DNA of 64,000 bases from Yersinia massiliensis CCUG 53443 (lineage in GTDB: Bacteria > Pseudomonadota > Gammaproteobacteria > Enterobacterales > Enterobacteriaceae): positions 62,001-126,000 of the forward strand of contig NZ_HE997650.1 in NCBI RefSeq assembly GCF_000312485.1, in the 5' to 3' direction. The notes under the pieces are model-generated. The model was given only the letters and a program-made list of their open reading frames with translations. It did no database searches and was not told the origin of the DNA. Made by a program: the position numbers and the translations under genes. This document shows, in pieces, positions 7,135 to 61,689 of this stretch (position 1 is the first letter of the stretch; each line of letters starts with the position of its first letter).

Positions 7135-7142
7135 GATATTCC

Positions 7143-9530: not shown

Positions 9531-9560
9531 ATTATTTGCTGCAAGGAATTGATAAACGGT

Positions 9561-11590: not shown

Positions 11591-12145
11591 ACAATAATGT
11601 GTTAATTCCGGCAGTGATTGGCCGTTTAAAATTTCGCCACCAAGCGCTTATTCTGTAATAACAATCGGCTCTGGTAATTATCAGAGTCGACAGTTATTGA
11701 TTTCACTATTGTTAAGCGCTGCTAATTAATTTTATAGATAATTAAGAAAATTATATTACTCATATTTTGTTAATAATCCACATTGATTTATCTACTTAAA
11801 TCATTCATGACGAAATACCATACCAACAAAACTCAAATTGAAACGATAAATAATAACTCGCTGAATAAAGGATTAAAATCAGGCAAAAGCACCATGGATA
11901 AATGGAGTGATAGCATCTATAGCCAAATCTCTGACAACCCAAGGATGGAAATGAAACCCATTCTCAATTTTGAATAGATGAAATCCATTTTACCGCTTTC
12001 GTTTACTCATAATGTTCAGAATATATATTCTTTTTTATGAATAACCTGTCTCTATTCAGGCAATCTTCGGTGTCCCTCTGAAAAGAGCCTTTCTTGCACA
12101 AATATGGTATTATTCTTAGTAATCCATATAAATGAAATTGATAGA
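11591..12145. other. AT-rich intergenic region between waaC and waaA
   Basis: A 555-base gap that is clearly AT-richer than its flanks. It contains a 56-codon open frame from ATG 11807 to 11977 (MTKYHTNKTQIETINN...) without a ribosome-binding site or recognisable similarity; I treat it as unsupported. No JUMPstart/ops element of the kind that precedes long LPS operons was seen. A promoter for waaA must lie in its right part. Confidence 0.6.
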
Positions 12146-13422
12146 ATGTTGCTGCGCTTATATCAGGTACTGCTCTACCTTATTCAACCTTTGATTTGGT
12201 TACGATTGCTGTTACGTAGCCGTAAAGCCCCCGCTTATCGTAAGCGTTGGGGTGAACGTTATGGTTTCTGCGCCGGTAAAGTCGTTGCTGGCGGCATCAT
12301 GCTGCATTCCGTTTCAGTCGGTGAAACATTGGCCGCTATTCCATTAGTTAGGGCATTACGTCACCGCTACCCATCGTTACCCATTACCGTCACGACCATG
12401 ACCCCTACAGGCTCGGAGCGCGTCCAGTCAGCGTTTGGTAAAGATGTTCATCACGTTTATCTGCCTTATGACCTGCCTGGTTCTGTCAACCGCTTCTTGG
12501 ACCAGGTCAATCCAAAGCTGGTGATCATCATGGAAACTGAGCTATGGCCGAACCTGATCAATGCCCTTTATCGCCGCAAGATACCACTGGTGATTGCGAA
12601 TGCGCGCCTCTCCGCTCGCTCTGCTGCTGGCTACAAAAAGATCGGCAGCTTTATGCGCAATATGCTGCAACGTATCACACTGATCGCCGCACAAAATAAA
12701 GAAGATGGGGATCGTTTCATTGAGTTGGGCCTCAAACGCTCACAACTGACGGTAACGGGTAGCCTAAAGTTTGATATTTCTGTCACCCCTGAATTAGCCG
12801 CCAGAGCAGTCACATTACGCAGCCAATGGGCAGCACACCGCCCAGTGTGGATAGCAACCAGCACCCATGACGGTGAAGAAGCTATTTTGCTTGAGGCTCA
12901 TCGGCAATTATTGGCGCATTTCCCAACCTTACTGTTGATTCTGGTACCACGTCATCCCGAACGCTTCCCAAAAGCGGTCGAACTGACGCAAAAAGCAGGG
13001 TTGAGTTACACCTTACGTAGCAAAGGCGAGATTCCTTCAGCCAGTACACAAGTGGTGATAGGCGATACCATGGGCGAGCTCATGCTCTTGTACGGAATTG
13101 CAGATTTAGCCTTTGTTGGAGGTAGTTTGGTTGAGCGTGGTGGTCATAACCCGCTGGAAGCGGCTGCACATGCGATACCTGTGCTGATGGGGCCACATAC
13201 GTTTAACTTTAAAGACATCTGTGCCAAGCTGGAACAGGCCGAAGGGCTGATTACCGTCACCGACACTTCATCGCTGGTGAAAGAGATAACCCTGCTGCTG
13301 ACAGATGAGGATTGCCGCCTCTATTATGGTCGCCATGCGGTTGATGTGCTGCATGAAAATCAGGGTGCCCTACAACGGCTTTTACACTTGCTGGAGCCTT
13401 ATCTACCGCAACGGAGCCACTA

Positions 13423-13423
<1 letters not shown>
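12146..13423 (+). CDS. waaA: 3-deoxy-D-manno-octulosonic acid (Kdo) transferase
   Basis: WaaA (KdtA), a GT30 glycosyltransferase anchored to the inner membrane, adds two Kdo residues to lipid IVA. The ATG at 12146 gives exactly 425 residues, the E. coli length, and starts [18 protein letters not shown], an N-terminal membrane helix. The conserved core [16 protein letters not shown], the [10 protein letters not shown] loop carrying the catalytic Glu, [10 protein letters not shown] and the donor-side [19 protein letters not shown] are all present. The waaE start overlaps the last base of its stop codon (TAATG), so waaA-waaE-coaD is a coupled operon. The frame extends 14 codons upstream without a good start. 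Confidence 0.97.
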
Positions 13424-19720: not shown

Positions 19721-21439
19721 CTATTTACGACCGTTGGGTTTCAGCTTCTCACCGACATTGAGCAAGAAGATTTCATTGTCACGGGTCGAAATACGCGCGG
19801 AACCATCATCCATTCGATAAGCACCCTCAGTAAAACCAGCCCCATTCAGGAAAGGTGCGACAGCTTGTGGCTTGTTACGCAGTGAAGCTTCCAGTGCCAG
19901 TAGTGCATAAGGTTCGATAGCATCGACATCAGCATATTGACGATCCGGTGAGGCCATAAAGAAGCCGTCGATATAACGGGTTTTAATGATGTTATCGCCG
20001 ATTTTCTCTGCTAATGCCCGATAATCAGCAACCTGACTCGCATTATAGAGATCCAGCAAGGCAAACAAGGCATAAGGGTCGCTATTCGTGGTATCTAGCT
20101 TGACCTTCATCTCTTTACCTGGCGCTGTACCGATATCACCTAACCCCTGATCATTTGCGATACCGCGAGCAACTTTCCACAGTAACGGATCATTATCAAT
20201 GGCATAGGCGCGGGCATAGGAAATCAGGAATTCGTTACCCGCTTTATACGGCTTGATCACCGTGCCTTTTTTGCCATAGTAGCCATCACGCGGCAGGGTA
20301 TAGTTTGATAAGTCCTGCCCGTTGGCAATCATCGGGCGGAAAGTATTATCCTGATCGTTATAAGCATATTTGGCGAACGCTTTCAGGCCATCGACAGTCC
20401 ATTTCAGCAAGTCCTGCCCTTGAGGGCCTAAGTCCTTGCCTAATTGCAACTGCATCAACGCATTTTCAGAATAAATCGTACTGGTGCGCCCTTTGAGCAT
20501 CATATTGCCTTCAAGCGCTCCTGCACCGAACTCAGGGCCAAATTGGCGCTGTGCACGGTCACCAAATTTAGAGTGCGTATCAGCATCATCCGTTGGCTCT
20601 TCTCGCTTCAGAGCTTGTGTAAACTGATAAACACCGAGGCCCGTTTTCGCATCACGCGGCAAGACGTATTGATCAGCTAAACGTTTAGCCCACACTAATG
20701 CCCCTTGGTCCTGCTGGTATTTGTAGAGTAGCGAAGCCGAATAAATCAGGTCATTACCCGCATTGAGGAAACTGAGCCCTTTGGTGGCAAAGAAAGGCGG
20801 CTGCTGTTCGAATTTGCTCTCCCACAACTCCCCCATCGGCTTGTTATACTCACCGTGGCGGCTGGTTTCCAGGATACGCCAGTCATAAACATGGGCGTTC
20901 CAGAAGCCACGAATAAAGCGCGCGGTGGCATCACGGTCAACACTAAACATTAAGTCATAATAGGGATAAGCATTTTTCAGCTCATGCACCATCTCTTTTT
21001 CGCTCGGCCCTTCTGGTTGCAGTGTTTTCAGATCAATAAAACGGTGCCCACCCCAGAAGAGTAAACCACTTGGATCCTGATAGTTCTGGAAGTGGTAGCG
21101 AACGATATCTTCAGCGCGCTTTTGATAGCGATTATCGCCACTTAGCTGGCTCAAGCCGCTCATGACACGCATCAAATTTTGTTGTGCCGAGAAGTTTGAT
21201 AATACCGCCCGACGACCATCGGGGAATATCCATTCCATTTGCTGCCCTGTACGGGGGTCAACACCATCTGCCAGCAGCGGGCTGGGCTTATCACCGTGAT
21301 AAGTGTCCGAGGCCTTGCTCAGCACATTATCGACATACTGCTTTACTACCGTCAGGCGATCGGTATCCGCTGCATGTCCGGCTGGTATATACAGCGTTGC
21401 CAATGCTGCCATACTCAAAAATAACGCTCTTTTTTTCAT
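19721..21439 (-). CDS. pelY: Periplasmic pectate lyase, polysaccharide lyase family 2
   Basis: The 572-residue protein has a clear signal peptide (MKKRALFLSMAALATLYIPA, cleavage after GHA, residue 23). It belongs to the PL2 family, which cleaves polygalacturonate by beta-elimination. In the mature numbering of Y. enterocolitica YePL2A, as I recall it, the metal ligands are His109, Glu130 and His172 and the catalytic base is Arg171. These map to His132, Glu153, His195 and Arg194 here, and all are present. PL2A enzymes are periplasmic and act on oligogalacturonides brought in by KdgM, whose gene lies 91 bases upstream. The cytoplasmic partner PL2B is not in this window. The gene occupies the place held by pyrE in E. 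coli. Confidence 0.92.
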   Translation of the reverse strand: MKKRALFLSMAALATLYIPAGHAADTDRLTVVKQYVDNVLSKASDTYHGDKPSPLLADGVDPRTGQQMEWIFPDGRRAVLSNFSAQQNLMRVMSGLSQLSGDNRYQKRAEDIVRYHFQNYQDPSGLLFWGGHRFIDLKTLQPEGPSEKEMVHELKNAYPYYDLMFSVDRDATARFIRGFWNAHVYDWRILETSRHGEYNKPMGELWESKFEQQPPFFATKGLSFLNAGNDLIYSASLLYKYQQDQGALVWAKRLADQYVLPRDAKTGLGVYQFTQALKREEPTDDADTHSKFGDRAQRQFGPEFGAGALEGNMMLKGRTSTIYSENALMQLQLGKDLGPQGQDLLKWTVDGLKAFAKYAYNDQDNTFRPMIANGQDLSNYTLPRDGYYGKKGTVIKPYKAGNEFLISYARAYAIDNDPLLWKVARGIANDQGLGDIGTAPGKEMKVKLDTTNSDPYALFALLDLYNASQVADYRALAEKIGDNIIKTRYIDGFFMASPDRQYADVDAIEPYALLALEASLRNKPQAVAPFLNGAGFTEGAYRMDDGSARISTRDNEIFLLNVGEKLKPNGRK

Positions 21440-21530
21440 TACCCGTTACCTGCCAAAAATTGTTATCTGTTAAAACCGTTATGGTGTGGTGTGACCCCAA
21501 ATATCAGAATCTGATAATTTCACTCATGGA

Positions 21531-22235
21531 TTAGAAACTGTATTTTATCCCGACGCGGTAACGAGTTTGGCGCTCGTCAGTAGCTTTACTGCCTGAGACA
21601 TTACCGACAGCCATATAAGGGGACCAATTCTTATCCCACTTGTAAGTTAATTTAAAATCGTGCGTCCAATCATAGCTTTCATTGTTCGATAAAATGACGC
21701 CGGCTTTATTGGCTTTTTTGTAGTCAATTTCATAATCTAATTGATAATCTTTGGCTATTTTATAGCTGATAACACTCGTTAAATTATAACCACTTTCAGA
21801 TGTGTCTTTGCTGGTATTAATATTGGCGCTGGTGCGTTTGTAATAGGGACGATAACGTAAGGAAACAGAGAGATCGTCAATGATATTTGCCTTGCCACGC
21901 AGGTAAGGACGATAGTTATTCGAGGTGGAGTTTGAGTCTAATGAGAAGCCTGGTTCAATAGAGAATGTTTTATCAATTTTATAAACATAACTCGCGACAA
22001 CTTCAGTCCCATTACTGACAGTTTCATTAAATGCTTTATCTTTATCTTGAGCACCTTTCCACTTACCTTCCAGAGACAATCCAAAGCCATTTGCGAAGCG
22101 GTGGGACATTAATAAGCGGTCTTTATGAGTGTTGCCACTTTGGTCTTGCATTTCATGACGATAGTCAATTGTTACCGCGACGGCGCTGGTGCTAAGAAGT
22201 GTTGCTACTGCCAGAGATAATAATTTAATTTTCAT
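21531..22235 (-). CDS. kdgM: Oligogalacturonate-specific outer-membrane porin KdgM
   Basis: KdgM is a small monomeric beta-barrel channel that admits acidic oligogalacturonides across the outer membrane. The 234-residue protein (236 in Dickeya) has a signal peptide (MKIKLLSLAVATLLSTSAVA) and then alternating aromatic/polar strands ending in a C-terminal phenylalanine (RYRVGIKYSF), as expected for outer-membrane assembly. It is upstream of pelY and the two probably form an operon for import and first cleavage of pectin fragments. A candidate KdgR operator lies 58-77 bases before the ATG. Confidence 0.93.
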   Translation of the reverse strand: MKIKLLSLAVATLLSTSAVAVTIDYRHEMQDQSGNTHKDRLLMSHRFANGFGLSLEGKWKGAQDKDKAFNETVSNGTEVVASYVYKIDKTFSIEPGFSLDSNSTSNNYRPYLRGKANIIDDLSVSLRYRPYYKRTSANINTSKDTSESGYNLTSVISYKIAKDYQLDYEIDYKKANKAGVILSNNESYDWTHDFKLTYKWDKNWSPYMAVGNVSGSKATDERQTRYRVGIKYSF

Positions 22236-22821: not shown

Positions 22822-22966
22822 GACATTGGGGCTACAGCTAGGCAGCCAGCAAGTAAATCCCGATGAGCTGACACTGGTCAGTGATTCGGGTGCGCGAGCG
22901 CAGCTAACAACGCTGTAGCACCAAGGACGAAGGGTAAATGCTGTAGCGTCAAGGATGAAGGGTATA
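22822..22966. repeat. ERIC element (Yersinia-type) with duplicated end
   Basis: The element has the ERIC core GGGTGCGCGAGCGCAGCTAAC, the long inverted repeat ATCCCGATGAGCTGACAC / GTCAGTGATTCGGG and the conserved end GGATGAAGGGTATA. The right end is present twice in tandem: GTAGCACCAAGGACGAAGGGTA, then GTAGCGTCAAGGATGAAGGGTA. The last copy overlaps the 3' end of the hmsP-like gene and supplies its stop codon. Confidence 0.85.
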
Positions 22967-24550
22967 GCGAGACTCAAACTCCTCCTGCGCCAACGCCTCC
23001 GAAAACAAAAAACCCTGCCCACATTGGATGCCATACTGCAGCAACCATTGGCGCTGCTCATCTGTTTCGATCCCTTCGGCCATCACTTTCAACTTCAATA
23101 CTTCAGAAACCGTGACTATAATACGCGCCATTACATCATCTTGTGGCAGGGATTTCACAAAACTCTTATCCAACTTAATCATGTTGATGGGTAAGCTTTT
23201 TAGATGGTTTAGGTACTGTAGGCTCGAATACCCTGTCCCGAAATCATCCAAGGCAATCGACAACCCAAGCTCACGAATTTCACGTAACAGCGTCAGTGCT
23301 TCATCAAGATTCTGTAAACGCGCTGTCTCGGTAATTTCCAAAATGAGTCGATGCGGATCAATAGCATACTGACTGATAAGGGCTTTCAAATGTGGGAGGA
23401 ACTGATCGCTCTGTACCTGTAAGCCTGAAATATTGACCGCAAGCGACAAGGTAATTCCTCGCGCCTTCCAGTCGGCCATAATACGGCACGCTTCTTCCAG
23501 CACCCAACTGCCCAGCGGCACCATTGCACCACTTTCTTCTGCTGCGTGGACAAACTCGGCTGGTAACCGGTAGTGCCCATCAGGCTGACGCCAGCGCAGT
23601 AACGCTTCCGCTCCGACAACCCGTTGTTCTGACATATTCCATTGCGGTTGCAAAAACAGGACGAAATCACCCTCTTCAATGGCCCGCAAAATATCGTTTT
23701 TCTGTGACAGTCGCCGTTGTATTTCTTCTGCAAAATACGGGTCGGATAAGTCAGCAACCGGATAACGAGTATTGATACGGTTCATGTCCGTATAGGCTTG
23801 CGCTAAGAGTTGCTGGTTACGATTATAATTGTGTACCAGTACCCCTAACTCATCATCTTGATGGTGAGCAGGTAAAGTCAGTTGGTGATTAAGCACGCCT
23901 TGCTGGCCCATTCTTTCCAACTCTTTCGCCATCGCGCGTAGTGGATGAATAATGAGGCGATTAATACACCAAGCGATAGAAACTGAGAGCACCAATGCCA
24001 ACAACAGATAGGTCGATAGCATGGCTGACAGCGCGCTGAGAATAAACTGATAGATTCGGTACGAATCCGCACGCAAGACTAAATGTGCCAAGGGCTGTGG
24101 ATTCGCAGATACCCGCTCCAGTGCATACAGGGGAACAGTTATTTCTACCGGTAGATAAAAAATACGTTTTGCCCAACGAGGTACTGGCCGCTCAGTGGGA
24201 AAGTTAGCGTGTAACACCTGAATTTGGTTAGGCAAAATAACTTCAGCGCGGCTGAGAATACCTATCGGCAATAGGCTATTGAGGATTTTTTTTGCTTGGG
24301 GGATATCAACGCTTAATACCGCTTCAGACAAGGGTTGGCGCACGGAATAGGCAATGCTCTCCAGTTGCCTGGCGTAATCATCCTTGCGCTGTTGCACAAA
24401 GTGAAATAACTGAAGGACGATAAAAATACAGATGGTGACCAATGCAACAACAGCCACTGCCGCCATTTGTTTAATCGTTAATGAACGCCTTACCCGCAAA
24501 CTCGCTCTCCGCCCAATGCCGACTGAATAAAAAAATGGTGGCCACGTCAT
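22949..24550 (-). CDS. hmsP: HmsP-like c-di-GMP phosphodiesterase lacking the GGDEF domain
   Basis: An inner-membrane EAL protein related to Yersinia HmsP and E. coli PdeK, which degrade c-di-GMP and limit biofilm. Of 533 residues, about 30-50 and 168-200 are membrane segments flanking a periplasmic domain. A HAMP region (about 195-250) and an EAL domain (about 285-530) follow. The EAL residues are complete: EAL at 315-317, Asn373, Glu405, DDFGTGYSS from Asp435, Lys459 and Glu492. The degenerate GGDEF domain that should follow HAMP is missing: RYPVADLSD (start of GGDEF) joins directly to DPYFAEEIQ (start of the EAL linker) near residue 270. The last codons (YTLHP, stop) lie in an ERIC element. 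A TTG start at 24499 with a GGAGAG site is an alternative (516 residues). Confidence 0.85.
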   Translation of the reverse strand: MTWPPFFYSVGIGRRASLRVRRSLTIKQMAAVAVVALVTICIFIVLQLFHFVQQRKDDYARQLESIAYSVRQPLSEAVLSVDIPQAKKILNSLLPIGILSRAEVILPNQIQVLHANFPTERPVPRWAKRIFYLPVEITVPLYALERVSANPQPLAHLVLRADSYRIYQFILSALSAMLSTYLLLALVLSVSIAWCINRLIIHPLRAMAKELERMGQQGVLNHQLTLPAHHQDDELGVLVHNYNRNQQLLAQAYTDMNRINTRYPVADLSDPYFAEEIQRRLSQKNDILRAIEEGDFVLFLQPQWNMSEQRVVGAEALLRWRQPDGHYRLPAEFVHAAEESGAMVPLGSWVLEEACRIMADWKARGITLSLAVNISGLQVQSDQFLPHLKALISQYAIDPHRLILEITETARLQNLDEALTLLREIRELGLSIALDDFGTGYSSLQYLNHLKSLPINMIKLDKSFVKSLPQDDVMARIIVTVSEVLKLKVMAEGIETDEQRQWLLQYGIQCGQGFLFSEALAQEEFESRYTLHP

Positions 24551-31382: not shown

Positions 31383-32651
31383 CTAATATTGCCAAGTCAC
31401 CGAGAATCCAAAGACCCAGGGTTCAGCATGAGTTTTATCGGGTTTGATGATAGGGATACCCACATTAAAATCATAACCCACTGAATGATAACGGCCGCGA
31501 GCCCCCACGACGGCCCCTACCAAACGATTACCTCGAAAAATTGAATGGCCACCTTCACTCACCTCCCCGTAATCCAGACCAAAATAAGTTTGTTGACCCG
31601 CGATCGGGTCATGCCATAAAACATCGTTTCTCACATACCACCCTTGTGGTCCAACTACCGCGCTATTGCCATTGAATCCGCGTACAGACTGGCGACCACC
31701 AATCGAAAATCTATCCTGCACGTTGATCGCTGAATAGGTATATTGATGGCTGAAAGCGGGCTGATAATTGAAAGCTTGCGCCCCCAATTTGAACGGGATA
31801 TCCAATGAGCCGGTGATCGCTACCAACCGTGCAGGTGACCTATCTATTTTGCCTTGAACAGGCCTGGCTCCCCACCATGTTGCTCCCTGTTGATAGCGAA
31901 TACTGCCCCTGAGGGTTGCCCCTGATATCGAGCGATAATACTCAATCCCCAATTGCCAGTCTGTCGTCTTAACTCGCTGGATACGAAGCTCTTTATTGGC
32001 ATAAAAACTGGCAGACTGCCGTATTAATAATCCGGCATACCCCGCCGTTTTATCATGGTCACCACGCGAAAGCAGCCGCTGAATTCGTACGTCAAACATA
32101 TTCCAGCGAGTACTGTACTGAAATGTATTATCTGCCAGTATTAGCGACTGATAGCGACGTCCTTGACTCCCTGTCATGCTCAATAACCAATTGCCATACG
32201 GGACTGAATAATGAAGTGCATAATTGCTGTAACCTTTGTCATGGTGTTTATCAGCATCACGATTAAACGAAAAATAGAGCAATTCACTCAACGAGAAAGG
32301 ATTATCGATAGACAGGATGAAACCGGAACGATAGTGTCCCAAAGCATAAGGCCCACCATCATCAAAGTATGCATTGGCTCGCCACAAACGTGCTTGCTGG
32401 CGATTAATCTTTATCTGGCTACTTAAGTCATCCTTGCTTATTTCAATATTGTTAACCAACACGCAGGCCCGTTGTTCCTCATTCAAAATAGGGTTTGATG
32501 GTGATCTTTCAGCAATAGCCTCTATCTCAGCAACAGCCTGAGTCGAGAATAACCCGATATTCATGTGAAGAAATAATAGAAATGTAATATTACTCCAGCA
32601 ATATTCATACCTATCTATTTTTCTCACATTTGTTTTATTTTTTAATTTCAT
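31383..32651 (-). CDS. Orphan TpsB/FhaC-family outer-membrane protein with POTRA region deleted
   Basis: The C-terminal about 320 residues match the 16-strand barrel of two-partner-secretion transporters (ShlB, HecB, FhaC). They begin ARLWRANAYFDDGGPYALG and contain the loop-6 motif VRGF (RQSVRGFNGNS) and a final aromatic residue (FSVTWQY). The N-terminus has an export segment ending near TQAVA, then only a trace of POTRA 1 (ACVLVNNIEI) before the barrel. At 422 residues it is about 130 shorter than functional TpsB proteins (about 550). The missing part corresponds to the two periplasmic POTRA domains that recognise the exoprotein. No tpsA gene is nearby. It is probably a non-functional remnant or an altered porin. 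ATG 32651 was chosen over GTG 32666 because AGG precedes it. Confidence 0.75.
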   Translation of the reverse strand: MKLKNKTNVRKIDRYEYCWSNITFLLFLHMNIGLFSTQAVAEIEAIAERSPSNPILNEEQRACVLVNNIEISKDDLSSQIKINRQQARLWRANAYFDDGGPYALGHYRSGFILSIDNPFSLSELLYFSFNRDADKHHDKGYSNYALHYSVPYGNWLLSMTGSQGRRYQSLILADNTFQYSTRWNMFDVRIQRLLSRGDHDKTAGYAGLLIRQSASFYANKELRIQRVKTTDWQLGIEYYRSISGATLRGSIRYQQGATWWGARPVQGKIDRSPARLVAITGSLDIPFKLGAQAFNYQPAFSHQYTYSAINVQDRFSIGGRQSVRGFNGNSAVVGPQGWYVRNDVLWHDPIAGQQTYFGLDYGEVSEGGHSIFRGNRLVGAVVGARGRYHSVGYDFNVGIPIIKPDKTHAEPWVFGFSVTWQY

Positions 32652-32666
32652 ATTAATCAACCTCAC

Positions 32667-36828: not shown

Positions 36829-38520
36829 TTATATTACCGGCTGAGGATGTCGGCTTGGTGCCTGACACCAGTTGTTTTGTTCATTAATCCCACCATCCGG
36901 CGAGGTGTAGCCCAAACAGCCTAAAATAGAATCAAACAGTTCAACATGACGATGTGTTTTACCCACACGTTGCTCTGCTTGTAGTTGCTCAAAGGCAGCG
37001 AGGTGCTCGGGTTGAGCCAAAAATTTATCTGAAGCCCAAACCATTAATGGCACACGAAATTGCTCTGGGGGGGCCATTTCACGCGGCGTACCGTGGAAGT
37101 GAGTATTATCATCGATAGACTCACCGTGATCGGCGGCATAAAACACTAATGCCTTTTTTTGCCGCATTTGGTCGATAACATTGGCGATAAATGAGTCGGT
37201 GTATAACACGCTGTTATCAAATGCATTGAGCAGTTGTTGCTTGCTACAAAAATCATCCACCCCCATACATTCTGGCTGATAGCGAGCATAACTACGGGGG
37301 TAACGCTGGGAGTAGAGATAGTGGGATCCTTTGGTATGCAGAATAACCAGATGCTTTCCTTGCGGATAACGTCCAAGTGACTCTTTCAACTCATCGACCA
37401 GCAACATATCATCCACAGGCTTATCATCATTACGCTTCTCTGAGGCGATAAGCTCGCGGAATGAGTAATTATCGGTGTTGGTATTATTGTAGAACCACAT
37501 CTCACTCTGCATGGCGAACAGCTCAGAAGTGAACCCCAATGATTTCATGACTGCGAAGATATTTTGTTCTTTCAATGTGCGCTGTGGGTTATCTTCCGCA
37601 CCGCCTTCACGTACAAACATGCAGCGCAGTGATAATTTCGTGGAGGTATCGCACGATGTGCCACGAAAAGCGACCAGATTCTTCTCTTTACTTAAACGGG
37701 GCGTCGTATCACGTGAATACCCCAACAGGCCCATATGATCCCAGCGGGTTGTTTCACCAATGATAAACACGACATAAGTGTCATCAATGCCTGCCGGAGC
37801 CACATAGGTATGATGTTCTGCTGGATCATACAGCGTTGCCGCATCATACCTTTCGTTGTATTGCGTATATGCGTATAACCCCAGTGCGGCCAACCAGTTA
37901 GAGGGCAGGTATGAGTGAGCCACTACGCCACCATAGCTGGGTAAATCTACCGTTTGCAGTTGCTCATTGGCCGCTTGCACTTTATCTAGATAACGAAGGG
38001 GCAACCAAACTAGCGCCACTGCCACTATCATCAACAAAATCGGCCTCATACGCTGACCAGGTGTCTTGCACTGCTCAAGTAGGGTTAAGCGCAGAGTGTT
38101 TTTCCAGATCAGCAGCAGAGGCAAAGCGCTGACCAGCACCATCCAGATAACAAAATGCAGCCCAATCACTTCTTTTGAAAGATCGGTATCTGTGGTTAAA
38201 ACGGAAATAACGATGCCATAACCAATCACGACATTGAAAAAAGTCATGTAATAGCTGGCAGCAACAGAAATGAGTACCAAGAGGGTCGCGACAACACGAT
38301 AAAACCACCGCCCACCGAGTGAAATCACCCGCATCACAAAAAAGGTAAACAGGATAATGGCCATCACTTCAATGATAGCGGTCACGACTTTTATCCCTTG
38401 GATACCTTGGCTAAAGGAGTCAAAACGACGATAAAAGACAGAGATATTCAAGAAAATGCCAATATAAACAGCCAACAACAAAGAAAGACTTTGCTGTGAT
38501 AAAGATTTTACTCTGTCCAT
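36829..38520 (-). CDS. eptB: Kdo2-lipid A phosphoethanolamine 7''-transferase EptB
   Basis: EptB transfers phosphoethanolamine from phosphatidylethanolamine to the outer Kdo of LPS in the periplasm, reducing surface charge. ATG 38520 gives 563 residues, the length of E. coli EptB; a GTG at 38544 is also open. There are five N-terminal transmembrane helices, then a periplasmic alkaline-phosphatase-fold domain. The catalytic signature includes IGETTRWDH, the nucleophile-threonine region CDTSTKLSLRC, and the zinc motif YAADHGES. The C-terminal LGYTSPDGGINEQNNWC matches E. coli closely. In E. coli eptB also neighbours dpp. It complements the waa genes of this window. Confidence 0.95.
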   Translation of the reverse strand: MDRVKSLSQQSLSLLLAVYIGIFLNISVFYRRFDSFSQGIQGIKVVTAIIEVMAIILFTFFVMRVISLGGRWFYRVVATLLVLISVAASYYMTFFNVVIGYGIVISVLTTDTDLSKEVIGLHFVIWMVLVSALPLLLIWKNTLRLTLLEQCKTPGQRMRPILLMIVAVALVWLPLRYLDKVQAANEQLQTVDLPSYGGVVAHSYLPSNWLAALGLYAYTQYNERYDAATLYDPAEHHTYVAPAGIDDTYVVFIIGETTRWDHMGLLGYSRDTTPRLSKEKNLVAFRGTSCDTSTKLSLRCMFVREGGAEDNPQRTLKEQNIFAVMKSLGFTSELFAMQSEMWFYNNTNTDNYSFRELIASEKRNDDKPVDDMLLVDELKESLGRYPQGKHLVILHTKGSHYLYSQRYPRSYARYQPECMGVDDFCSKQQLLNAFDNSVLYTDSFIANVIDQMRQKKALVFYAADHGESIDDNTHFHGTPREMAPPEQFRVPLMVWASDKFLAQPEHLAAFEQLQAEQRVGKTHRHVELFDSILGCLGYTSPDGGINEQNNWCQAPSRHPQPVI

Positions 38521-38794
38521 AAAACGCCCGGTCTCCAAAGACACTATTTGCGGCTTGAATCAATCAGACAGTGAACCCGCTATCAGGTTCAGTGTGATAT
38601 CAATAAGCAGGCTATAGATTTTTCGCGAGAAATATCTTAGCCGCTCTCAATGGTCCTGTCCGCGAGCTAACGCAAACTCTCCATAGCGGATATGGGTTTA
38701 ACTATCCCAAAGCAGTGTAGAACGAGGCAGCATGTACGAGGGCGAAGAACAGCCCACAAGAAAAGTCTTATGGGCTTATGAGACGGGAACTGGC

Positions 38795-45978: not shown

Positions 45979-46046
45979 GGCAATTTCCTTCAACCAGTTT
46001 TTCAGGTGTCGACGACATTACTTCTCTTGAGCTTTTATTAACATAT

Positions 46047-46062
46047 ACTCGTATAGACAAGT
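46047..46062 (-). promoter_or_regulatory. Candidate HutC operator upstream of hutU
   Basis: ACTCGTATAGACAAGT is a near-palindrome matching the HutC-type operator CTTGTNTANACAAG with one mismatch in the left arm. It lies 69-84 bases before the hutU start. HutC is a GntR-family repressor relieved by urocanate. No hutC gene is in the window. Confidence 0.6.
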
Positions 46063-46249
46063 ACAATCAAGCACAAGGAAAACGACAACAAAACGGCAGA
46101 AACATCAAAATAAAATCAGGTAATAACCTTAATTATTAATTGGTTATGGTTGATATCATTTTGAATTAATGTATAGCAAAAGGATTTTTGACGTGTTTTT
46201 CTCTATGAAATCAGCATAAAATTGGTGTGTTTTTGCGCACGGAGTCACA

Positions 46250-46589
46250 TATAATTCACATGGATTTTACATTGTGACACCCTTATTGAGCAATACATCG
46301 CAGCTAAAACACCGTTCAATATCGCCTAAATCAATACCAAAAACTAATATGTTGATATATCTCACACAAATTAAAGCCGCGATAGAAATCCGTCAAAATA
46401 CGTATTTTAGCTTGGATAAGAAGATGAGAAGGTCAGTGACTATAGAGGTGAGATTAATTTCGGCATCGGCAAAGGGTTGGTGATATTCCTCCATTTAAGT
46501 CAGACTAAAAACAACCTTAATATATAATGAGTTACATAATATCTGGCACTAAAATGATAAAAGCCCTGACTGAGTTAGCCAGGGCTTTT
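46250..46589 (+). other. Possible short transcription unit without a recognised gene
   Basis: A perfect TATAAT at 46250-46255 with a poor -35 region is followed by an intrinsic terminator at 46559-46589. Between them a GTG-started frame of 69 codons (46274-46483) has no recognised similarity or ribosome site. It might be a small RNA or nothing. Confidence 0.3.
46559..46589. terminator. Rho-independent terminator
   Basis: The perfect arms AAAAGCCCTG / CAGGGCTTTT surround an 11-base loop. The symmetric A/T flanks let it act on either strand. No protein gene ends directly before it on either side. Confidence 0.8.
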
Positions 46590-47938
46590 AAGGTACTACA
46601 AATTTAAAATTAAACATTAATCAACTTAATAACGTATTACTTATCTACGTACTGTTTATATCGATGTACATGTTTCTACAGGAATATTTTGTTTAGTGTT
46701 AACTCTCCCTCCAATATTTTAACTGAATGGTAACAATTCCTGCTTAATTCATTTCAGTCATGCCTATGATAAGACAGACTAAATTAGTACATCCCCTCGC
46801 GATATATACTCTTGTTACATGGCTTTAACTCTCGTCGCGATATTCTCGATCTCATACTCACGTACACAAATCGCGAACATTACTATTAACAACAAAGCCT
46901 TAACTCATCGCGTTATCGTCCACAGAATGCGATTGTAAAGATTTACTGCGTGGCCTTAAAGCATCATCACAATGGTCATTTATAAAAAAACCGCCGTGAA
47001 TCTCACATAAAAAAGTATTTCGTGACCTTTATCGCATTATTTAAATCTTGCTACATGGACACCGGTTAAATAAAAATTTCGTTACTCATTGCACCGGTGT
47101 TAAATTCCAATCTACTTGTTCTGCATGAGATGTCAATACTGTTTTTAAGTACATGGTTTTATTATCAGCACGACAAAATGAGAATGCTTTACACCGACCT
47201 TAATTGAGTTTTAATTCATTATCTTAGCGTCAAGGATTCCAATCATCCGTAATATCGTGACTGTTATGTTGGGTTTAACTTAATCTTGGTCCAAGGAAAG
47301 TGGCATACAACTTAGATATGATTTTTTCTACCTTTAGGCTTATTTGAGTTAATAGAATCTTTGCTAATATCTTTCAGTCATTAAGACTGCCAATATTGTG
47401 TGAAGCACTGTGACATGATTAGCACAATAAGAAAGCAAGTGATTGAGAAGCGTGACAACAAACACAGGTTATCTTAATCAACTCAGTCACGATGACATAT
47501 ATCGAGTTTTAGCATTTTTTTGAAGTGAGAAGCTCTAATTACAGAGACCCCATGCTTTAGTGCCACTAATCCATAAAAACGGTATATCTACCCTCTCGCA
47601 CACTGAAACAAGCTGCCAGCATCACTTTTGAGAATTTCCTCAAAAGTACATAACAACATAAAAAATATCGTGTTTTATTACATTTTTCATGCTTAACTTT
47701 CGTTCTATGCCACACTGTTAGAGTAGAAATAACAATTAATATGATTATGACTACTATCTAATGTCAGGTATGCAAAAATTACACATATACTTTATCAGTA
47801 TCAGTCGGGTGTTCTCGATAGCATCACACGACAGAGGCTAGAATTATCACAAAAAACCAAGTGGGCCAGGGATGAGCTATTTTTAACGACTGGCTAAGGT
47901 AACTAAAAGACACATAGATATTTTTTGGGGGATCGCGC
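46590..47938. other. 1.35-kb region without open frames upstream of rpfR
   Basis: AT-rich sequence with no open frame of 60 codons on either strand. It contains clustered TCGCGA motifs (about 46798-46875) and an imperfect direct repeat, CTTTAACTC...TCGCGATAT (about 46824) and CCTTAACTC..TCGCGTTAT (about 46898). It also has a perfect 9-base hairpin ACTTTTGAG / CTCAAAAGT at 47624-47647. It must contain the rpfR promoter at its right end. A c-di-GMP (GEMM) riboswitch was looked for and not seen. Confidence 0.6.
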
Positions 47939-49162
47939 ATGTTCGAAGACCAAGACACATCGATCCTCAATACCTATTTTGGTACCCACAGTCCTTTTTG
48001 GCGACTTGCTTTTGATAGCCAAGCTTTAGAGTTATCAGCAATTAAAGGGACGACTATTATTGCGATTCCCCTCAATTCAGTTCAAACAATGAAAATCCGG
48101 AGTTTAACTGGTATTACCGCCAGTTTAGATGTCGAAATTAAGATTTACGGACATCCACTTCACTTACACCTCGTTGGCCGCAAAATTAATGACAAAGAAT
48201 GGGGAGGGACAGCCTCAGCTTATGCTGATACCGAGTCTGTCGCACGCGATTTAGTAGTAGGGCTTTCTTTTGCCGAACAGGTCGTTTCTGAAGCAAATTC
48301 AGTGATCGTTATTCTTGATAAAGAAGGCTGCGTCCAACGTTTCAATCATCTCAGCGAAGAATATACCGGGAAGAAAGAACAAGATGTGATTGGCAAAAAT
48401 GTCTATGACTTGTTTATGACCGCTAAAGAAGGGGCATCATCCCGTAAGAATATTGAAGGCTTCTTCCAACGTGGTGCGTCTTATGAAGTTGAACGTTGGG
48501 TCAATACCGTTAAAGGGAAGCGTCTATTCCTATTTCGTAATAAATTTGTTCATAGCGGAAGTGGTAAAAATGAACGCTACCTTATCTGTTCCGGTACAGA
48601 TATAACGAAAGAGAGACGAGCTCAAGAACGCCTCCGGATTTTAGCGAATACCGATATGATTACGGGTCTTCCTAACCGTCATGCTATTCATGAGCGCATT
48701 AATAGCGCGATCCAAACTCGTGGTGAAACTTCGGTCGGCATTATTTATCTCGATCTCGATAACTTTAAAAAAGTAAATGACCATTATGGCCATATGTTTG
48801 GTGACAGATTACTTAAAGACGTCTCGCTGGCTATTTTAGGTTGCTTGGGTGAGAACGAAATGCTTGCCAGGCTAGGCGGTGATGAGTTTATTGTTCTGGT
48901 CGAAAATGCCCGCATGAGTGAGTTAGAAACGACAACACAGCGTATTCTTAATCGCATGAAAGCGCCTTTTAGAGTCGGATTAATCGAGGTTTATACGGGA
49001 TGCTCCATTGGCATTGCATTATGCCCAGAGCATGGCGATACGCTGGAAAATATTATTCGCAGTGCAGACACCGCCATGTATACCGCAAAAGAACATGGTA
49101 AGCGTACCTACTCAATCTTTTCACAAGAAATGAATAAAAAGTATCTGAGTATGTATGGCTAG
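47939..49162 (+). CDS. rpfR: RpfR N-terminal part: RpfF-interaction, PAS and GGDEF domains
   Basis: This 407-residue product is the N-terminal 60% of RpfR, a cytoplasmic receptor for diffusible signal factor (cis-2 fatty acids). RpfR is known from Burkholderia and Cronobacter. Residues 1-90 (FEDQDTSILNTYFGTHSPFW...) match the RpfF-interaction domain. Residues about 110-225 are a PAS domain, with SFAEQVVSEANSVIVILD, then a PAC segment ending CSGTDITKERRAQERL. Residues about 235-395 are a diguanylate cyclase domain with an intact GGDEF at 313-317. The ATG has a strong GGGGGA site 7 bases upstream. The frame ends at TAG 49160 just after the frame change, adding only YLSMYG of foreign sequence. 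Confidence 0.88.
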   Translation: MFEDQDTSILNTYFGTHSPFWRLAFDSQALELSAIKGTTIIAIPLNSVQTMKIRSLTGITASLDVEIKIYGHPLHLHLVGRKINDKEWGGTASAYADTESVARDLVVGLSFAEQVVSEANSVIVILDKEGCVQRFNHLSEEYTGKKEQDVIGKNVYDLFMTAKEGASSRKNIEGFFQRGASYEVERWVNTVKGKRLFLFRNKFVHSGSGKNERYLICSGTDITKERRAQERLRILANTDMITGLPNRHAIHERINSAIQTRGETSVGIIYLDLDNFKKVNDHYGHMFGDRLLKDVSLAILGCLGENEMLARLGGDEFIVLVENARMSELETTTQRILNRMKAPFRVGLIEVYTGCSIGIALCPEHGDTLENIIRSADTAMYTAKEHGKRTYSIFSQEMNKKYLSMYG

Positions 49163-49170
49163 ATACCAAT

Positions 49171-49932
49171 TTGCGTAAAGGTTTAGAACAGCACCAATTA
49201 CAAGTCTTTTACCAACCTAAAATATCGACTCAAACCGGTAAAGTGCACAGTGTGGAAGCCTTAGTGAGATGGCTTTCACCTGAACGCGGTTTAATTGCCC
49301 CTCTGATGTTTATTTCATATGCGGAAGAGTCTGGGCTGATAGGACCACTGGGTAAATGGGTTCTACAAACCTCAATGCAACAAGCTGTAGATTGGAAAAA
49401 GCGAGGAATTAATCTGAGAGTTGCCGTTAATGTCTCTGCTCGGCAATTAATTGATGAGGCGATCGTCACCAGTTTTAGGGAATCACTAGAAGCAAGCAAT
49501 CTAGAATACAGCTTGGTGGATGTAGAATTAACCGAAAGTTGTTTGATCGATGATGAAGATGCGGCTATCAACATCATGAAGCAATTACGTCACTTAGGTG
49601 CACAGGTTCATTTGGATGACTTCGGCACCGGTTATTCTTCGCTTTCCCAATTGGCACGTATTCCCATTGATGCCATTAAGCTGGATCAAAGCTTTGTTCG
49701 TGGCATTGATAATAATCCTATTTCACAATCACTGGTTCGAGCCATTATTGTGGTTGCTGAAGCGCTTAAAATGCGGGTCATTGCCGAAGGGGTGGAAACA
49801 AAAGGTGAAGAGGTGTTCTTGGATTCTATAGGTATTGATGAAAAACAAGGATTTCTTTACGCCAAACCAATGCTCGCAGATGAACTGGAGCATTGGCTGG
49901 TCACACAACACCCTCACCTTTTACAAGATTAG
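49171..49932 (+). CDS. rpfR: RpfR C-terminal part: EAL phosphodiesterase domain
   Basis: The 253-residue frame holds the whole EAL c-di-GMP phosphodiesterase domain of RpfR. The catalytic residues are present: EAL at 29-31 (SVEALVRW), NVSARQ, ELTES, DDFGTGYSSLSQL, KLDQSFV and AEGVET. It starts with TTG 49171 only because that is the first start codon after the frame change; real homology begins upstream at VSEYVWLDTN. There is no ribosome-binding site for separate translation, so this domain may be made only by frameshifting or not at all. Confidence 0.82.
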   Translation: MRKGLEQHQLQVFYQPKISTQTGKVHSVEALVRWLSPERGLIAPLMFISYAEESGLIGPLGKWVLQTSMQQAVDWKKRGINLRVAVNVSARQLIDEAIVTSFRESLEASNLEYSLVDVELTESCLIDDEDAAINIMKQLRHLGAQVHLDDFGTGYSSLSQLARIPIDAIKLDQSFVRGIDNNPISQSLVRAIIVVAEALKMRVIAEGVETKGEEVFLDSIGIDEKQGFLYAKPMLADELEHWLVTQHPHLLQD

Positions 49933-49960
49933 GTGCCAAAAACGCCTTAGATAACAAAAG

Positions 49961-50827
49961 CTATATTGCTTTAGGCATTGTCGAAGTATGCCTATCTTGT
50001 AACATCACCAATCGCTCAATATAAGCGATATCCTTTGGCTCAATTGAGAATACAGAATCGACCCAATCTTCAGTTATATCCATTAACTCAGAACGTGTTA
50101 GCTGTAAAACACGCTGCCGGACTCGAATCATGGCTCTCATACCATTTAACTTAGGTCTGATTGTGTCTATAAAGGTGCGAGTCGCAAGATACGCATCGCC
50201 CGGTTGAAATAACTTATCCACTAACCCTCGGCTTTCATACCATTCGGCAGCATGTGATTCTCCTGTCCAAATCAGTTGTTCAGCCACCCGCATACCCGCT
50301 TTTCTCGCGACCAGTGAATATCCTCCCATCCCAGGGAATAGGTTAAAGGCAATTTCAGGAAAGCCCATTCTGGCAGTCGTCTGTGCCAAGACAAAATGAT
50401 GAGCGAGTGCCGCTTCAAATCCTCCCCCTAGCGCACTACCTTCAATCATCGCAATCGATACGGCACCAGTATCAAATCCGCGAGAAGCTGCATGGACGCA
50501 ATCGACGCAAGCACGAGCATAGGCCATGAGTGATTCACGTTTACGGCTTCGAATCATTTGTGCAAAAAAGCTTAAATCCCCCCCCACATTAAACATATTA
50601 GGTACGACTGACCCTGTGACCCAAAAGTCGAAGGGCAATTTCGACTCTTTAGCCGCCTTTACTAGCGTCATAATATTTTCAATTAACTCGAGGTTAAAAC
50701 AAGGGCGTGGATGCGCTCGCAATAGCATCCACATAATATTGCGCTCTTCTTCATAATAAGCCGATATTTGGGATAAATGGCCGGCTTCAGTAAAAGGGCG
50801 GCAGCTAGGCAGATTGATCATATTCAT
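49961..50827 (-). CDS. rpfF: DSF synthase RpfF (enoyl-CoA hydratase family)
   Basis: RpfF is a crotonase-fold enzyme that makes cis-2-unsaturated fatty-acid signals (DSF/BDSF) from acyl-ACP, with both dehydratase and thioesterase activity. The 288-residue protein (289 in Xanthomonas) has both key glutamates: Glu138 in ALGGGFEAAL and Glu158 in GFPEIAFNLFPGMG. They are 20 residues apart, as Glu141/Glu161 in Xanthomonas RpfF. FNVGGDLSFFAQ is also typical. It is convergent with rpfR, with 28 bases between their stops, the arrangement I recall for Cronobacter and Burkholderia. No rpfC/rpfG is present, so the signal would act through RpfR. Confidence 0.88.
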   Translation of the reverse strand: MNMINLPSCRPFTEAGHLSQISAYYEEERNIMWMLLRAHPRPCFNLELIENIMTLVKAAKESKLPFDFWVTGSVVPNMFNVGGDLSFFAQMIRSRKRESLMAYARACVDCVHAASRGFDTGAVSIAMIEGSALGGGFEAALAHHFVLAQTTARMGFPEIAFNLFPGMGGYSLVARKAGMRVAEQLIWTGESHAAEWYESRGLVDKLFQPGDAYLATRTFIDTIRPKLNGMRAMIRVRQRVLQLTRSELMDITEDWVDSVFSIEPKDIAYIERLVMLQDRHTSTMPKAI

Positions 50828-51116
50828 ATTCCATCCAATGAGTTAGTTGAACACGGAAAGGACTTCTCAAGCCATATCCTCCTTGAGGAACGCTCAAAAG
50901 ACCGTAGTCACGGCAATCTAAGCTGGCAGTTAAATAGTGAGTCACTCAATGGATAAATGAGGGGAAAGCAGTAAAATATTAAATAACCGGAATGTTTAGC
51001 GCGCAGCTATGCAATGCGTAGAATATACCTTTTCATGAGCATTGAATTTTAGATGAAAAAATTCTGATATTGCAGATAAAATGCTGACTGAAAATTTATT
51101 CCTGACGGATTTTTTT

Positions 51117-52307
51117 ATGTTGCACATTCTGCACTTTTTTCTGGCATTGATAACCATTGCCATACTGGCATTACTGGCGAGCCGCGACCGTAAGAGTATT
51201 AGACTACGCTTTATTTTCCAATTACTGATTATAGAAATAGCACTCGCTTATTTTTTCCTACACTCAGAAAGTGGATTAGGCGCAATCACTTATTTCGCAG
51301 GATTATTCGAAGTATTGATGAAATTTGCAGCGGTCGGCACCAGTTTTGTTTTTGGGAATATGAATGAGCAAGGTTTAGCCTTTATATTCTTGAATGTCCT
51401 TTGCCCTATTATTTTCATTTCCGCACTGATTGGTATTTTACAGCATTTCCATGTACTACCACTCATCATACGGGTTGTGGGTACACTGCTGTCAAAAGTA
51501 AACGGAATGGGCAAACTCGAGTCCTTCAATGCTGTAAGCACCTTGATTCTAGGGCAATCCGAGAATTTCATTGCCTATAAAGGAATTATTGCTGATATCT
51601 CACCACGCAGAATGTACACCATGGCTGCAACAGCGATGTCAACGGTGTCGATGTCAATCGTGAGTGCTTATATGACCATGCTCGAGCCAAAATTTGTGGT
51701 AACAGCACTCATTTTGAATATGTTTAGTACTTTTATTGTTCTTTCTATCATTAACCCTTATCACCCCAGTGAAGAACCGGAATTAAAACTAAACAAGCTT
51801 CATGAAGATCAAAGTTTTTTTGAAATGTTGGGCGAATATATTCTAGCCGGTTTTAAAATTGCCATGATAATAGCCGCAATGTTAATCGGGTTTATTGCCA
51901 TCATTTCTGCTATTAATGCTTTATTTAGTAGCCTATTCAACATCAGTTTCCAAGGTGTTCTAGGGTATCTATTTTATCCACTGGCGTTTCTAATTGGCAT
52001 TCCTGCTCAAGATGCCTTGCAAGCAGGGAGTATTATGGCAACCAAATTGGTCGCCAATGAATTTGTTGCCATGATTGAGTTGAAAAAAGTGGCCGCTGAA
52101 ATGTCTCCGCGTGGCTTAGGGATTCTTTCCGTATTTTTAGTCTCTTTTGCCAACTTTGCTTCTATTGGCATCGTGGCGGGCGCCATTAAAGGATTGAATG
52201 AACGCCAGGGTAATGTGGTATCACGATTCGGCTTAAAACTCGTTTACGGTTCAACGTTAGTCAGCCTGCTTTCTGCCGCCATTACAGGGCTTATCCTGTC
52301 GTTGTAG
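51117..52307 (+). CDS. NupC-type concentrative nucleoside:H+ symporter
   Basis: A 10-helix (or so) inner-membrane carrier of the CNT family. ATG 51117 gives 396 residues and aligns from the first helix with E. coli NupC ([19 protein letters not shown]). The shared core includes [16 protein letters not shown] and [31 protein letters not shown], then [20 protein letters not shown]. These match NupC more closely than NupX or PsuT. It is probably a NupC paralogue, since the main nupC locus is expected elsewhere. The frame also opens at 51081, without homology. It is divergent from rpfF. Confidence 0.85.
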
Positions 52308-59607: not shown

Positions 59608-61689
59608 ATGAAAGGCCGCCTGCTGGATGCCGTTCCCCTAAGTACACTTTCTGGTGTGGGTGCCAGTCAGGCTGGGAAACTGGCCAAAATGGGCCTCGAA
59701 ACCATTCAAGATTTGTTGCTTCACCTTCCACTGCGTTATGAAGACCGTACTCGTTTATACCGTATTGGCGATCTTTTACCCGGCCTTTCTGTCACGGTCG
59801 AAGGTGAAGTTCTGCGATCTGATATCAGTTTTGGCCGCCGCCGTATGATGACCTGCCAAATCAGCGATGGTAGCGGCGTTTTGACCCTGCGCTTTTTTAA
59901 CTTCAATGCCGCCATGAAAAATAGCTTGTCACCGGGCAAGCATGTAATTGCCTATGGCGAAGCCAAGCGGGGCAATACGGGGCCAGAAATCATTCATCCT
60001 GAATATCGGGTGCATGGCGAAAATATTGGCGTTGAATTGCAAGAATCCCTGACACCTGTTTATCCCACCACAGAAGGGATTCGTCAGGCAACACTGCGCA
60101 AGCTAATTGATCAAGCTCTGGCCATGTTGGATACCTGCGTCATTGCTGAGTTATTACCGATAGAATTAAGTCGCTCGCTGATTAGCCTGCCTGAAGCTAT
60201 TCATACATTGCATCGCCCACCAGCCGATATCCAACTGATTGACTTAGAGCAAGGGAAACATCCTGCACAGCGGCGGCTGATTATGGAAGAGTTACTGGCC
60301 CATAATCTCAGCATGTTAGCCGTTAGAGCGGGTGCTCAGAGCTATCGGGCACTGCCTTTGTTGGCAGAAGATGAGCTGAAGCAACGTTTTCTAGCTGCAC
60401 TACCGTTCACCCCCACGCACGCCCAGCAGCGGGTGGTGGCAGAAATTGAACAGGACATGACGCATAATTTCCCGATGATGCGGCTGATTCAAGGCGATGT
60501 GGGATCGGGTAAAACATTGGTTGCCGCACTGGCAGCACTACGTGCTATTGCTCATGGCAAACAAGTGGCGTTGATGGCCCCGACCGAATTGCTCGCAGAA
60601 CAGCATGCCAATACCTTCCGCCAATGGTTGGAGCCATTAGGTTTGGAAGTGGGCTGGCTCGCTGGGAAGCAAAAAGGCAAAGCGCGACTGGCGCAGCAAG
60701 ATGCCATCGCCAGTGGTCAGGTTGCGATGGTCGTTGGTACTCACGCGATGTTCCAGGAACAAGTGCGTTTTTCCGGACTGGCACTGGTCATTATTGATGA
60801 GCAGCATCGCTTCGGTGTTCATCAACGGCTCGCGTTATGGGAAAAAGGCGAAGAACAAGGGTTCCACCCGCATCAGCTCATTATGACAGCCACCCCAATT
60901 CCCCGAACGCTCGCCATGACCGCCTACGCAGACCTCGATACCTCCGTGATTGATGAACTGCCGCCGGGAAGAACTCCCGTGACAACCGTCGCCATCCCCG
61001 ATACCCGCCGTAGCGATGTGATTCAACGGGTGAAAAACGCTTGTCTGGAAGAGGGCCGACAGGCGTACTGGGTGTGTACCTTGATTGAAGAATCTGAGGT
61101 GCTCGAAGCCCAAGCCGCCGAAGTGACGTGTGAAGAGCTCAAAAATGCCTTGCCGGAGATTAAAGTCGGCTTAGTGCATGGGCGGATGAAAGGCGCCGAA
61201 AAACAGGCTGTTATGCTGGCTTTTAAGCAGGGTGAATTGCAGCTATTGGTCGCGACGACGGTGATTGAGGTCGGCGTAGACGTACCGAACGCGAGCTTGA
61301 TGATCATCGATAACCCTGAACGCTTGGGGTTAGCACAATTACACCAATTGCGTGGTCGCGTAGGTCGAGGCGCTGTCGCCTCACACTGTGTACTGCTCTA
61401 TAAAACGCCACTGAGCAAAACCGCCCAAATGCGTTTGCAAGTATTGCGCGACAGTAACGATGGTTTTGTTATTGCACAACGCGACTTAGAAATCCGTGGC
61501 CCTGGTGAGTTATTAGGCACTCGGCAGACAGGGAATGCAGAGTTTAAAGTGGCCGATTTACTGCGTGACCAAGCCATGATCCCCGAAGTGCAGCGCGTCG
61601 CTCGTCATCTGCACCAGCAATACCCCGAACATGCTCGCGCATTAATTGAGCGTTGGTTACCCGAGCGAACGCGCTATACGAACGCATAA
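59608..61689 (+). CDS. recG: ATP-dependent DNA helicase RecG
   Basis: RecG is a superfamily-2 helicase that remodels forks and Holliday junctions and regresses stalled replication forks. The 693-residue protein is the E. coli length. An N-terminal OB-fold wedge domain precedes the helicase core. Walker A is GDVGSGKT, the DExH box is IIDEQHRFG, and motif VI is QLRGRVGRG. The C-terminal TRG motif region is intact. It is the last gene of the gmk-recG run; a terminator lies 36 bases beyond. Confidence 0.98.
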   Translation: MKGRLLDAVPLSTLSGVGASQAGKLAKMGLETIQDLLLHLPLRYEDRTRLYRIGDLLPGLSVTVEGEVLRSDISFGRRRMMTCQISDGSGVLTLRFFNFNAAMKNSLSPGKHVIAYGEAKRGNTGPEIIHPEYRVHGENIGVELQESLTPVYPTTEGIRQATLRKLIDQALAMLDTCVIAELLPIELSRSLISLPEAIHTLHRPPADIQLIDLEQGKHPAQRRLIMEELLAHNLSMLAVRAGAQSYRALPLLAEDELKQRFLAALPFTPTHAQQRVVAEIEQDMTHNFPMMRLIQGDVGSGKTLVAALAALRAIAHGKQVALMAPTELLAEQHANTFRQWLEPLGLEVGWLAGKQKGKARLAQQDAIASGQVAMVVGTHAMFQEQVRFSGLALVIIDEQHRFGVHQRLALWEKGEEQGFHPHQLIMTATPIPRTLAMTAYADLDTSVIDELPPGRTPVTTVAIPDTRRSDVIQRVKNACLEEGRQAYWVCTLIEESEVLEAQAAEVTCEELKNALPEIKVGLVHGRMKGAEKQAVMLAFKQGELQLLVATTVIEVGVDVPNASLMIIDNPERLGLAQLHQLRGRVGRGAVASHCVLLYKTPLSKTAQMRLQVLRDSNDGFVIAQRDLEIRGPGELLGTRQTGNAEFKVADLLRDQAMIPEVQRVARHLHQQYPEHARALIERWLPERTRYTNA

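What the first reader, a model, noticed from the sequence alone, without database searches (positions are those of the whole stretch)
47939..50827. Convergent RpfR/RpfF fatty-acid signalling pair in an enterobacterium
The EAL/GGDEF/PAS gene and the crotonase-family gene form a complete DSF-type system: a synthase with both catalytic glutamates (138 and 158), and a receptor whose N-terminal 90 residues match the RpfF-interaction domain and whose PAS domain would bind the fatty acid. It has no RpfC/RpfG and sits in an accessory block with pectin, histidine and LPS genes. This suggests cell-density control of c-di-GMP in an environmental or host-associated Yersinia.
Basis: partly seen in the sequence, partly recalled or inferred. 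Interest (0 to 1): 0.85.

Follow-up and report, generated by a model that had tools for sequence, protein, structure and literature searches.

The report
Known fatty-acid signalling pair, broken receptor

Summary
The gene pair is real, but it is known and, in this genome, broken. RpfF (49961-50827, minus) is intact and close to the solved B. cenocepacia RpfF, with Glu138 and Glu158 in place. RpfR is not one gene: FI-PAS-GGDEF is a frame of 407 codons (47939-49162), and the EAL phosphodiesterase domain (49171-49932) lies in another frame. All 80 named relatives examined carry the convergent pair; 79 of 80 read RpfR through, the exception being Y. pekkanenii with a different lesion. Of 25 Yersinia genomes, 23 carry rpfR and 21 have it in one uninterrupted frame, including the nearest relative. 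The break is therefore private to this genome and recent, or a sequence error. 'Accessory block' is not supported: the pair is in most of the genus, in the same place, under strong purifying selection. Its presence in Yersinia is already in print. Best reading: a standard BDSF locus whose receptor has recently lost its attached phosphodiesterase, leaving an intact synthase and possibly a truncated receptor that still binds RpfF. In passing: HmsP, another c-di-GMP phosphodiesterase in this window, has no GGDEF domain, and is short in 15 of 25 Yersinia genomes.

The parts
47939..49162 (+). rpfR, first open frame, 407 aa: RpfF-interaction (FI) domain 2-94, PAS 114-223, GGDEF 236-389; ends at a stop before the EAL domain
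   Evidence: motif GGDEF and PAS residues S168 N171 Y182 R186 N201 present
49120..49170 (+). stretch in which the reading frame of rpfR changes; the gene is broken here
   Evidence: two frames, starts 1232 bases apart; model positions 404-412 uncovered; 79 of 80 named relatives read through
49171..49932 (+). rpfR remnant, second open frame, 253 aa: EAL phosphodiesterase domain with EAL, ELTE, DDFGTG and KLD motifs
   Evidence: (EAL 220.9 bits)
49961..50827 (-). rpfF, intact DSF/BDSF synthase of the crotonase fold, 288 aa
   Evidence: (PRK08788 408.5 bits, cut-off 177); E138, E158, F44, F88

Best explanation
An ordinary, vertically kept RpfF/RpfR (BDSF-type) signalling locus in which the receptor gene has recently been broken in this one genome. 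Shown by sequence: intact synthase, intact FI-PAS-GGDEF frame, intact EAL motifs in a separate frame, and an unbroken receptor in 79 of 80 named relatives. Inferred from B. cenocepacia and C. turicensis: RpfF makes a cis-2 fatty acid from an acyl-ACP; the full receptor would bind it at PAS and raise EAL activity, lowering c-di-GMP, while its FI domain holds RpfF back. Inferred for this isolate: if the 407-aa product is stable it can still bind RpfF and the fatty acid and keeps a GGDEF domain, but has no attached phosphodiesterase, so the signal can no longer lower c-di-GMP through RpfR and c-di-GMP is expected to rise.
For: Family. Two frames. Convergent rpfR in 80 of 80 named loci, one open frame in 79 of 80; the exception is L009, Y. 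pekkanenii, with one in-frame stop. Of 25 genus genomes (window's own included) 23 have rpfR; 21 of 23 in one uninterrupted frame, the others being the window's own and G017. Nearest genome G014 has a 671-codon open frame. Recent: against G014, the FI, PAS and GGDEF pieces have 0 nonsynonymous and 31 synonymous changes in all, the EAL piece 2 and 25. Not a generally error-ridden contig: of 111 G014 ORFs of 150 aa or more with an 80% match on contig C8, 107 are intact and 4 broken or partial, rpfR among them. Functional precedent: rpfR mutants have raised c-di-GMP in C. turicensis (PMC4698668, passage) and B. cenocepacia (PMC6361424, Results section).
Against: Only one assembly of this species was at hand, so a sequencing or assembly error cannot be excluded; besides rpfR one other ORF on the contig matched in two frames, though over 97% in one of them. 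No expression or biochemical data. The 2 nonsynonymous changes in EAL are too few to show relaxed selection. The truncated protein may simply be degraded.
Confidence: 0.72

Rival explanations
1. Sequence error: the receptor is intact in the living strain and the frame change is a mistake of the assembly. Then the first reader's 'complete system' would hold and the locus is wholly ordinary.
For: A single draft assembly in 22 contigs; the break is private to it; the two sides show no decay; the break lies in an A-rich stretch.
Against: Few other coding breaks on the same contig: 107 of 111 compared ORFs intact.
Confidence: 0.2
2. Programmed or leaky translation: ribosomes change frame, or restart, at the break, so that both a short FI-PAS-GGDEF protein and some EAL-bearing product are made.
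For: The first possible start of the second frame lies within 10 bases of the first stop, and both sides are conserved.
Against: No other genome examined has this arrangement: 79 of 80 named loci and 21 of 23 rpfR-bearing Yersinia genomes have one plain frame, and the remaining other genome has an in-frame stop instead. A programmed site would be expected to be shared.
Confidence: 0.05
3. The 288-aa protein is an ordinary enoyl-CoA hydratase and not a signal synthase.
For: It has the crotonase fold (PF00378 59.3 bits), and the NCBIfam model it passes, PRK08788, is named only crotonase/enoyl-CoA hydratase family protein.
Against: 449 bits to solved RpfF against 59 bits to the best crotonase outside that group; adjacent rpfR in 80 of 80 loci.
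Confidence: 0.03

Closest known systems
RpfF/RpfR (BDSF) system of Burkholderia cenocepacia and Cronobacter turicensis
   Same: Convergent genes; crotonase-type synthase with Phe44/Phe88; receptor with FI, PAS (S, N, Y, R, N fatty-acid residues), GGDEF and EAL domains (PMC6361424)
   Different: In this genome the receptor is split into two frames, so sensor and phosphodiesterase are not one protein
RpfF/RpfR loci of other Yersinia and of Serratia
   Same: RpfF identity 98% to Y. aleksiciae, 93-98% over 11 named Yersinia loci, 80-85% in 16 Serratia loci; same convergent order
   Different: Receptor uninterrupted in these except Y. pekkanenii (L009), which has its own in-frame stop
Xanthomonas RpfF with RpfC/RpfG
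   Same: Same fold and the aligned Glu pair (3m6m, 156 bits)
   Different: 188 bits to the NCBIfam RpfF model, cut-off 550; no RpfC/RpfG among the named neighbours

Membership tests
RpfF (BDSF synthase) | Closer to solved RpfF than to other crotonases | tested here: met
   449 bits to 6dgn, 59 bits to 5zai, the best outside the RpfF group
RpfF (BDSF synthase) | Two active-site glutamates | tested here: met
   E138 and E158; E at both in 80 of 80 named relatives; their catalytic role is recalled, from no call
RpfF/RpfR pair | Adjacent and convergently transcribed | tested here: met
   stated for the type system in PMC6361424 (passage)
RpfR | N-terminal FI domain | tested here: met
   2-94 to 6dga, 77.8 bits
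RpfR | PAS residues that hold the fatty acid (S, N, Y, R, N) | tested here: met
   S168 N171 Y182 R186 N201; same in 80 of 80 named relatives, Y182 in 79 of 80; roles from PMC6361424
RpfR | One polypeptide carrying FI-PAS-GGDEF-EAL | tested here: not met
   EAL is in another frame. The gene descends from an rpfR but is not an intact one here
RpfF/RpfR pair | Makes cis-2-dodecenoic acid; signal raises c-di-GMP phosphodiesterase activity | not testable with these tools
   needs LC-MS and enzyme assay
Xanthomonas-type Rpf (RpfF/RpfC/RpfG) | rpfC and rpfG beside rpfF | tested here: not met
   Named neighbours are hutU, hutH, a ProY-like permease, a NupC-type transporter, a PRK10578-like protein and a DUF3574 protein. 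One HD_5 (HD-GYP) match in the genome, on contig C1 in a 1013-codon frame, much longer than RpfG (recalled, about 380 aa). RpfC itself was not searched for genome-wide

The most novel reading that the evidence does not exclude
The truncated FI-PAS-GGDEF protein is stable and selected: a receptor converted from a signal-activated phosphodiesterase into a signal-binding RpfF brake with only a cyclase domain, reversing the sign of the circuit in this lineage. Y. pekkanenii would be a second, independent loss of an intact receptor beside an intact synthase.
Probability: 0.07. Interest if true: 0.5.

Novelty: already known. Interest (0 to 1): 0.18.

Why it matters
The pair itself is a documented, widespread system, so this adds one more genome. 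What is of use is the correction: annotation by domain hits alone would call this a complete quorum-sensing circuit, whereas the receptor is split. The genus survey also shows the pair in 23 of 25 Yersinia genomes with occasional lesions: receptor in 2 of 23 carriers, synthase in 1 of 23, both genes missing in 2 of 25.

Tried and rejected
Ordinary enoyl-CoA hydratase: rejected on score. Accessory island: rejected on genus distribution, a constant neighbour (yicG-like gene in 11 of 11 named Yersinia loci) and low pN/pS. Conserved programmed frameshift: rejected because relatives read through. Generally bad assembly: not supported by the contig comparison, though error at this one place stays open. 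Excess of lesions in rpf genes over background: not supported; the neighbour nupC fares worse, being near-complete in 8 of 11 named Yersinia loci, in two pieces in L007 and a short remnant in L004 and L008, and matched near rpfF in 20 of 25 genus genomes. Rfam found nothing in the long gap upstream of rpfR at gathering thresholds. Structure prediction was not used, since solved relatives of the synthase and of the FI and PAS domains cover the question.

Full report
What is there. Two genes converge at 47939-50827. On the minus strand, 49961-50827 encodes 288 aa that match NCBIfam PRK08788 at 408.5 bits (cut-off 177) and the RpfF model NF053515 at 188 bits, below its cut-off of 550. Among solved structures the best are RpfF 6dgn and 5fus (449 and 447 bits), then 7zq7 and RpfF 3m6m (157 and 156), then another crotonase, 5zai, at 59 bits. 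PMC6361424 identifies 5FUS as B. cenocepacia RpfF (Results section read). Glu138 and Glu158 are present, as are Phe44 and Phe88, which that paper says would clash with bound fatty acid in the FI-bound form. All four are identical in 80 of 80 named relatives.

The receptor is broken. On the plus strand the first frame, 47939-49162, holds 407 aa: an FI domain (2-94 to 6dga, 77.8 bits), a PAS domain (114-223 to 6dgg, 173 bits) and GGDEF (151 bits). The fatty-acid contacts reported for C. turicensis RpfR (S169, N172, Y183, R187, N202) correspond to S168, N171, Y182, R186, N201 here (the one-residue offset is read from the FI alignment). The frame then meets a stop. The EAL domain (220.9 bits) is in a second frame, 49171-49932, whose start lies 1232 bases from the first, that is, in another phase. 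NCBIfam PRK10060 is covered at 1-403 by one piece and 413-659 by the other.

Is the break shared? Not in what was examined. Of 324 confirmed relatives in the named genome collection the best 80 were kept; all 80 have rpfR converging on rpfF, and in 79 of 80 a single open frame runs through both pieces. The exception, L009 from Y. pekkanenii, has both pieces in the same frame with one stop. In 25 Yersinia genomes (the window's own included; they overlap with the 11 named Yersinia loci) rpfF is whole in 22, split in G005, and in G007 and G022 only distant crotonases match. rpfR is found in 23 of 25 at E 1e-100; 21 of the 23 have one uninterrupted frame of 670 codons or more, the window's genome has the frame change, and G017 has one TAA. 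G017 and L009 share contig number and position of rpfF, so they are almost certainly one genome. The nearest genome, G014 (about 96% DNA identity over most of the window), has an open frame of 671 codons.

Error or real? Against G014 the FI, PAS and GGDEF pieces have 0 nonsynonymous and 8, 13 and 10 synonymous changes; the EAL piece has 2 and 25; rpfF 1 and 21. So the gene was under strong constraint until very recently. On contig C8, 111 G014 ORFs of at least 150 aa have a match of 80% or more: 107 intact, 4 broken or partial. Of the 4, rpfR is the one split over two frames with 60% in the best piece; one other also touched two frames but kept 97% in one; one had a stop; one was partial. A further 87 G014 ORFs had no such match, presumably because more of G014 was fetched than C8 covers. 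In the other direction, of 114 C8 ORFs 109 are intact in G014, 4 broken or partial and 1 without a match. The contig is not riddled with breaks, but an error at this place cannot be excluded from one assembly.

Surroundings. In 11 of 11 named Yersinia loci the yicG-like gene (name recalled; PRK10578, 126 bits, cut-off 326) lies upstream of rpfF. The gene between, nupC, is near-complete in 8 of 11, in two pieces in L007 and a short remnant in L004 and L008; in the genus set it matches near rpfF in 20 of 25. hutU was found beyond rpfR only in Y. aleksiciae among the 11, though L007 and L011 end too near rpfR to tell. In the 69 other named loci (L012-L080) none of the six neighbours tested was found at E 1e-5, yet the pair stays together. 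So the pair travels as a unit and, within Yersinia, sits in a constant place. LPS genes (8580-13423, 36829-38544) and pectin genes (19721-22235) are in the window but not next to it.

Mechanism. In the type system RpfF dehydrates and hydrolyses 3-hydroxydodecanoyl-ACP to BDSF; BDSF stimulates the phosphodiesterase; FI binds RpfF and inhibits it (PMC6361424). Loss of rpfR raises c-di-GMP 3.9-fold in C. turicensis (PMC4698668, passage) and also raises it in B. cenocepacia biofilm cells. By inference, this isolate should make signal but fail to turn it into c-di-GMP breakdown by RpfR. Whether the 407-aa product exists, brakes RpfF or makes c-di-GMP is untested.

Prior knowledge. PMC4698668 says that homologs of both RpfF and RpfR are present in Achromobacter, Yersinia, Serratia, Enterobacter and Cronobacter (passage); PMC6361424 lists Y. 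enterocolitica for RpfR (passage). The search for RpfR, RpfF and Yersinia together listed 9 papers, of which these two were opened, in passages and, for PMC6361424, the abstract and Results. The listings showed no title on a frame-broken rpfR in Yersinia; that is a statement about those searches and titles only.

By-product. The window also holds HmsP (22949-24550, minus; named by NCBIfam NF008807, 922.9 bits), 533 aa with GAPES3, HAMP and EAL and no Pfam GGDEF match. The 670-position model has its GGDEF-like part at about 247-407, to judge by where RpfR's GGDEF matches it. In 15 of 25 Yersinia genomes the query matches in one run with open frames of 528-585 codons; in 10 of 25 it matches in two blocks, meeting at about residue 270, within open frames of 682-729 codons. 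So the genus seems to have a long and a short HmsP; the extra part of the long form was not itself scanned.

Noticed in passing
22949-24550 (-): HmsP (GAPES3-HAMP-EAL, 533 aa) has no GGDEF match, against a 670-position model. Short form in 15 of 25 Yersinia genomes, long form in 10 of 25; how often the change happened was not worked out.
   Followed up: partly
L009 (Y. pekkanenii), rpfR at about 6911-8890 (-): An independent rpfR lesion: one in-frame stop beside an intact rpfF.
   Followed up: partly
G005:C1:1433590-1434452: rpfF matched in two open frames (1-138 and 132-288) beside an rpfR in one open frame of 671 codons.
   Followed up: no
45994-47938: 1.9 kb AT-rich gap (35% GC) upstream of rpfR, without a listed ORF of 80 aa or an Rfam match; up to about 300 bases next to rpfR align in 10 of 11 named Yersinia loci, the rest only in Y. 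aleksiciae (in part) and G014.
   Followed up: partly
31383-32666 (-): ShlB/FhaC-type two-partner secretion transporter (427 aa) matching only 65% of a 545-aa ORF in the sister genome G014, which has extra DNA just downstream of it and within its 5' part.
   Followed up: no
51081-52307 (+); L004, L007, L008: The nupC-type gene beside rpfF is whole here but decayed in several relatives: two pieces in L007, short remnants in L004 and L008.
   Followed up: partly
60428-60682 (-): Rfam Ysr141 sRNA, full-length match at 216.5 bits, lying opposite the ORF 59608-61689 (+).
   Followed up: no
G000:C1:1434080-1434541 (+): The only HD_5 (HD-GYP) match found in this genome, in a 1013-codon frame.
   Followed up: no
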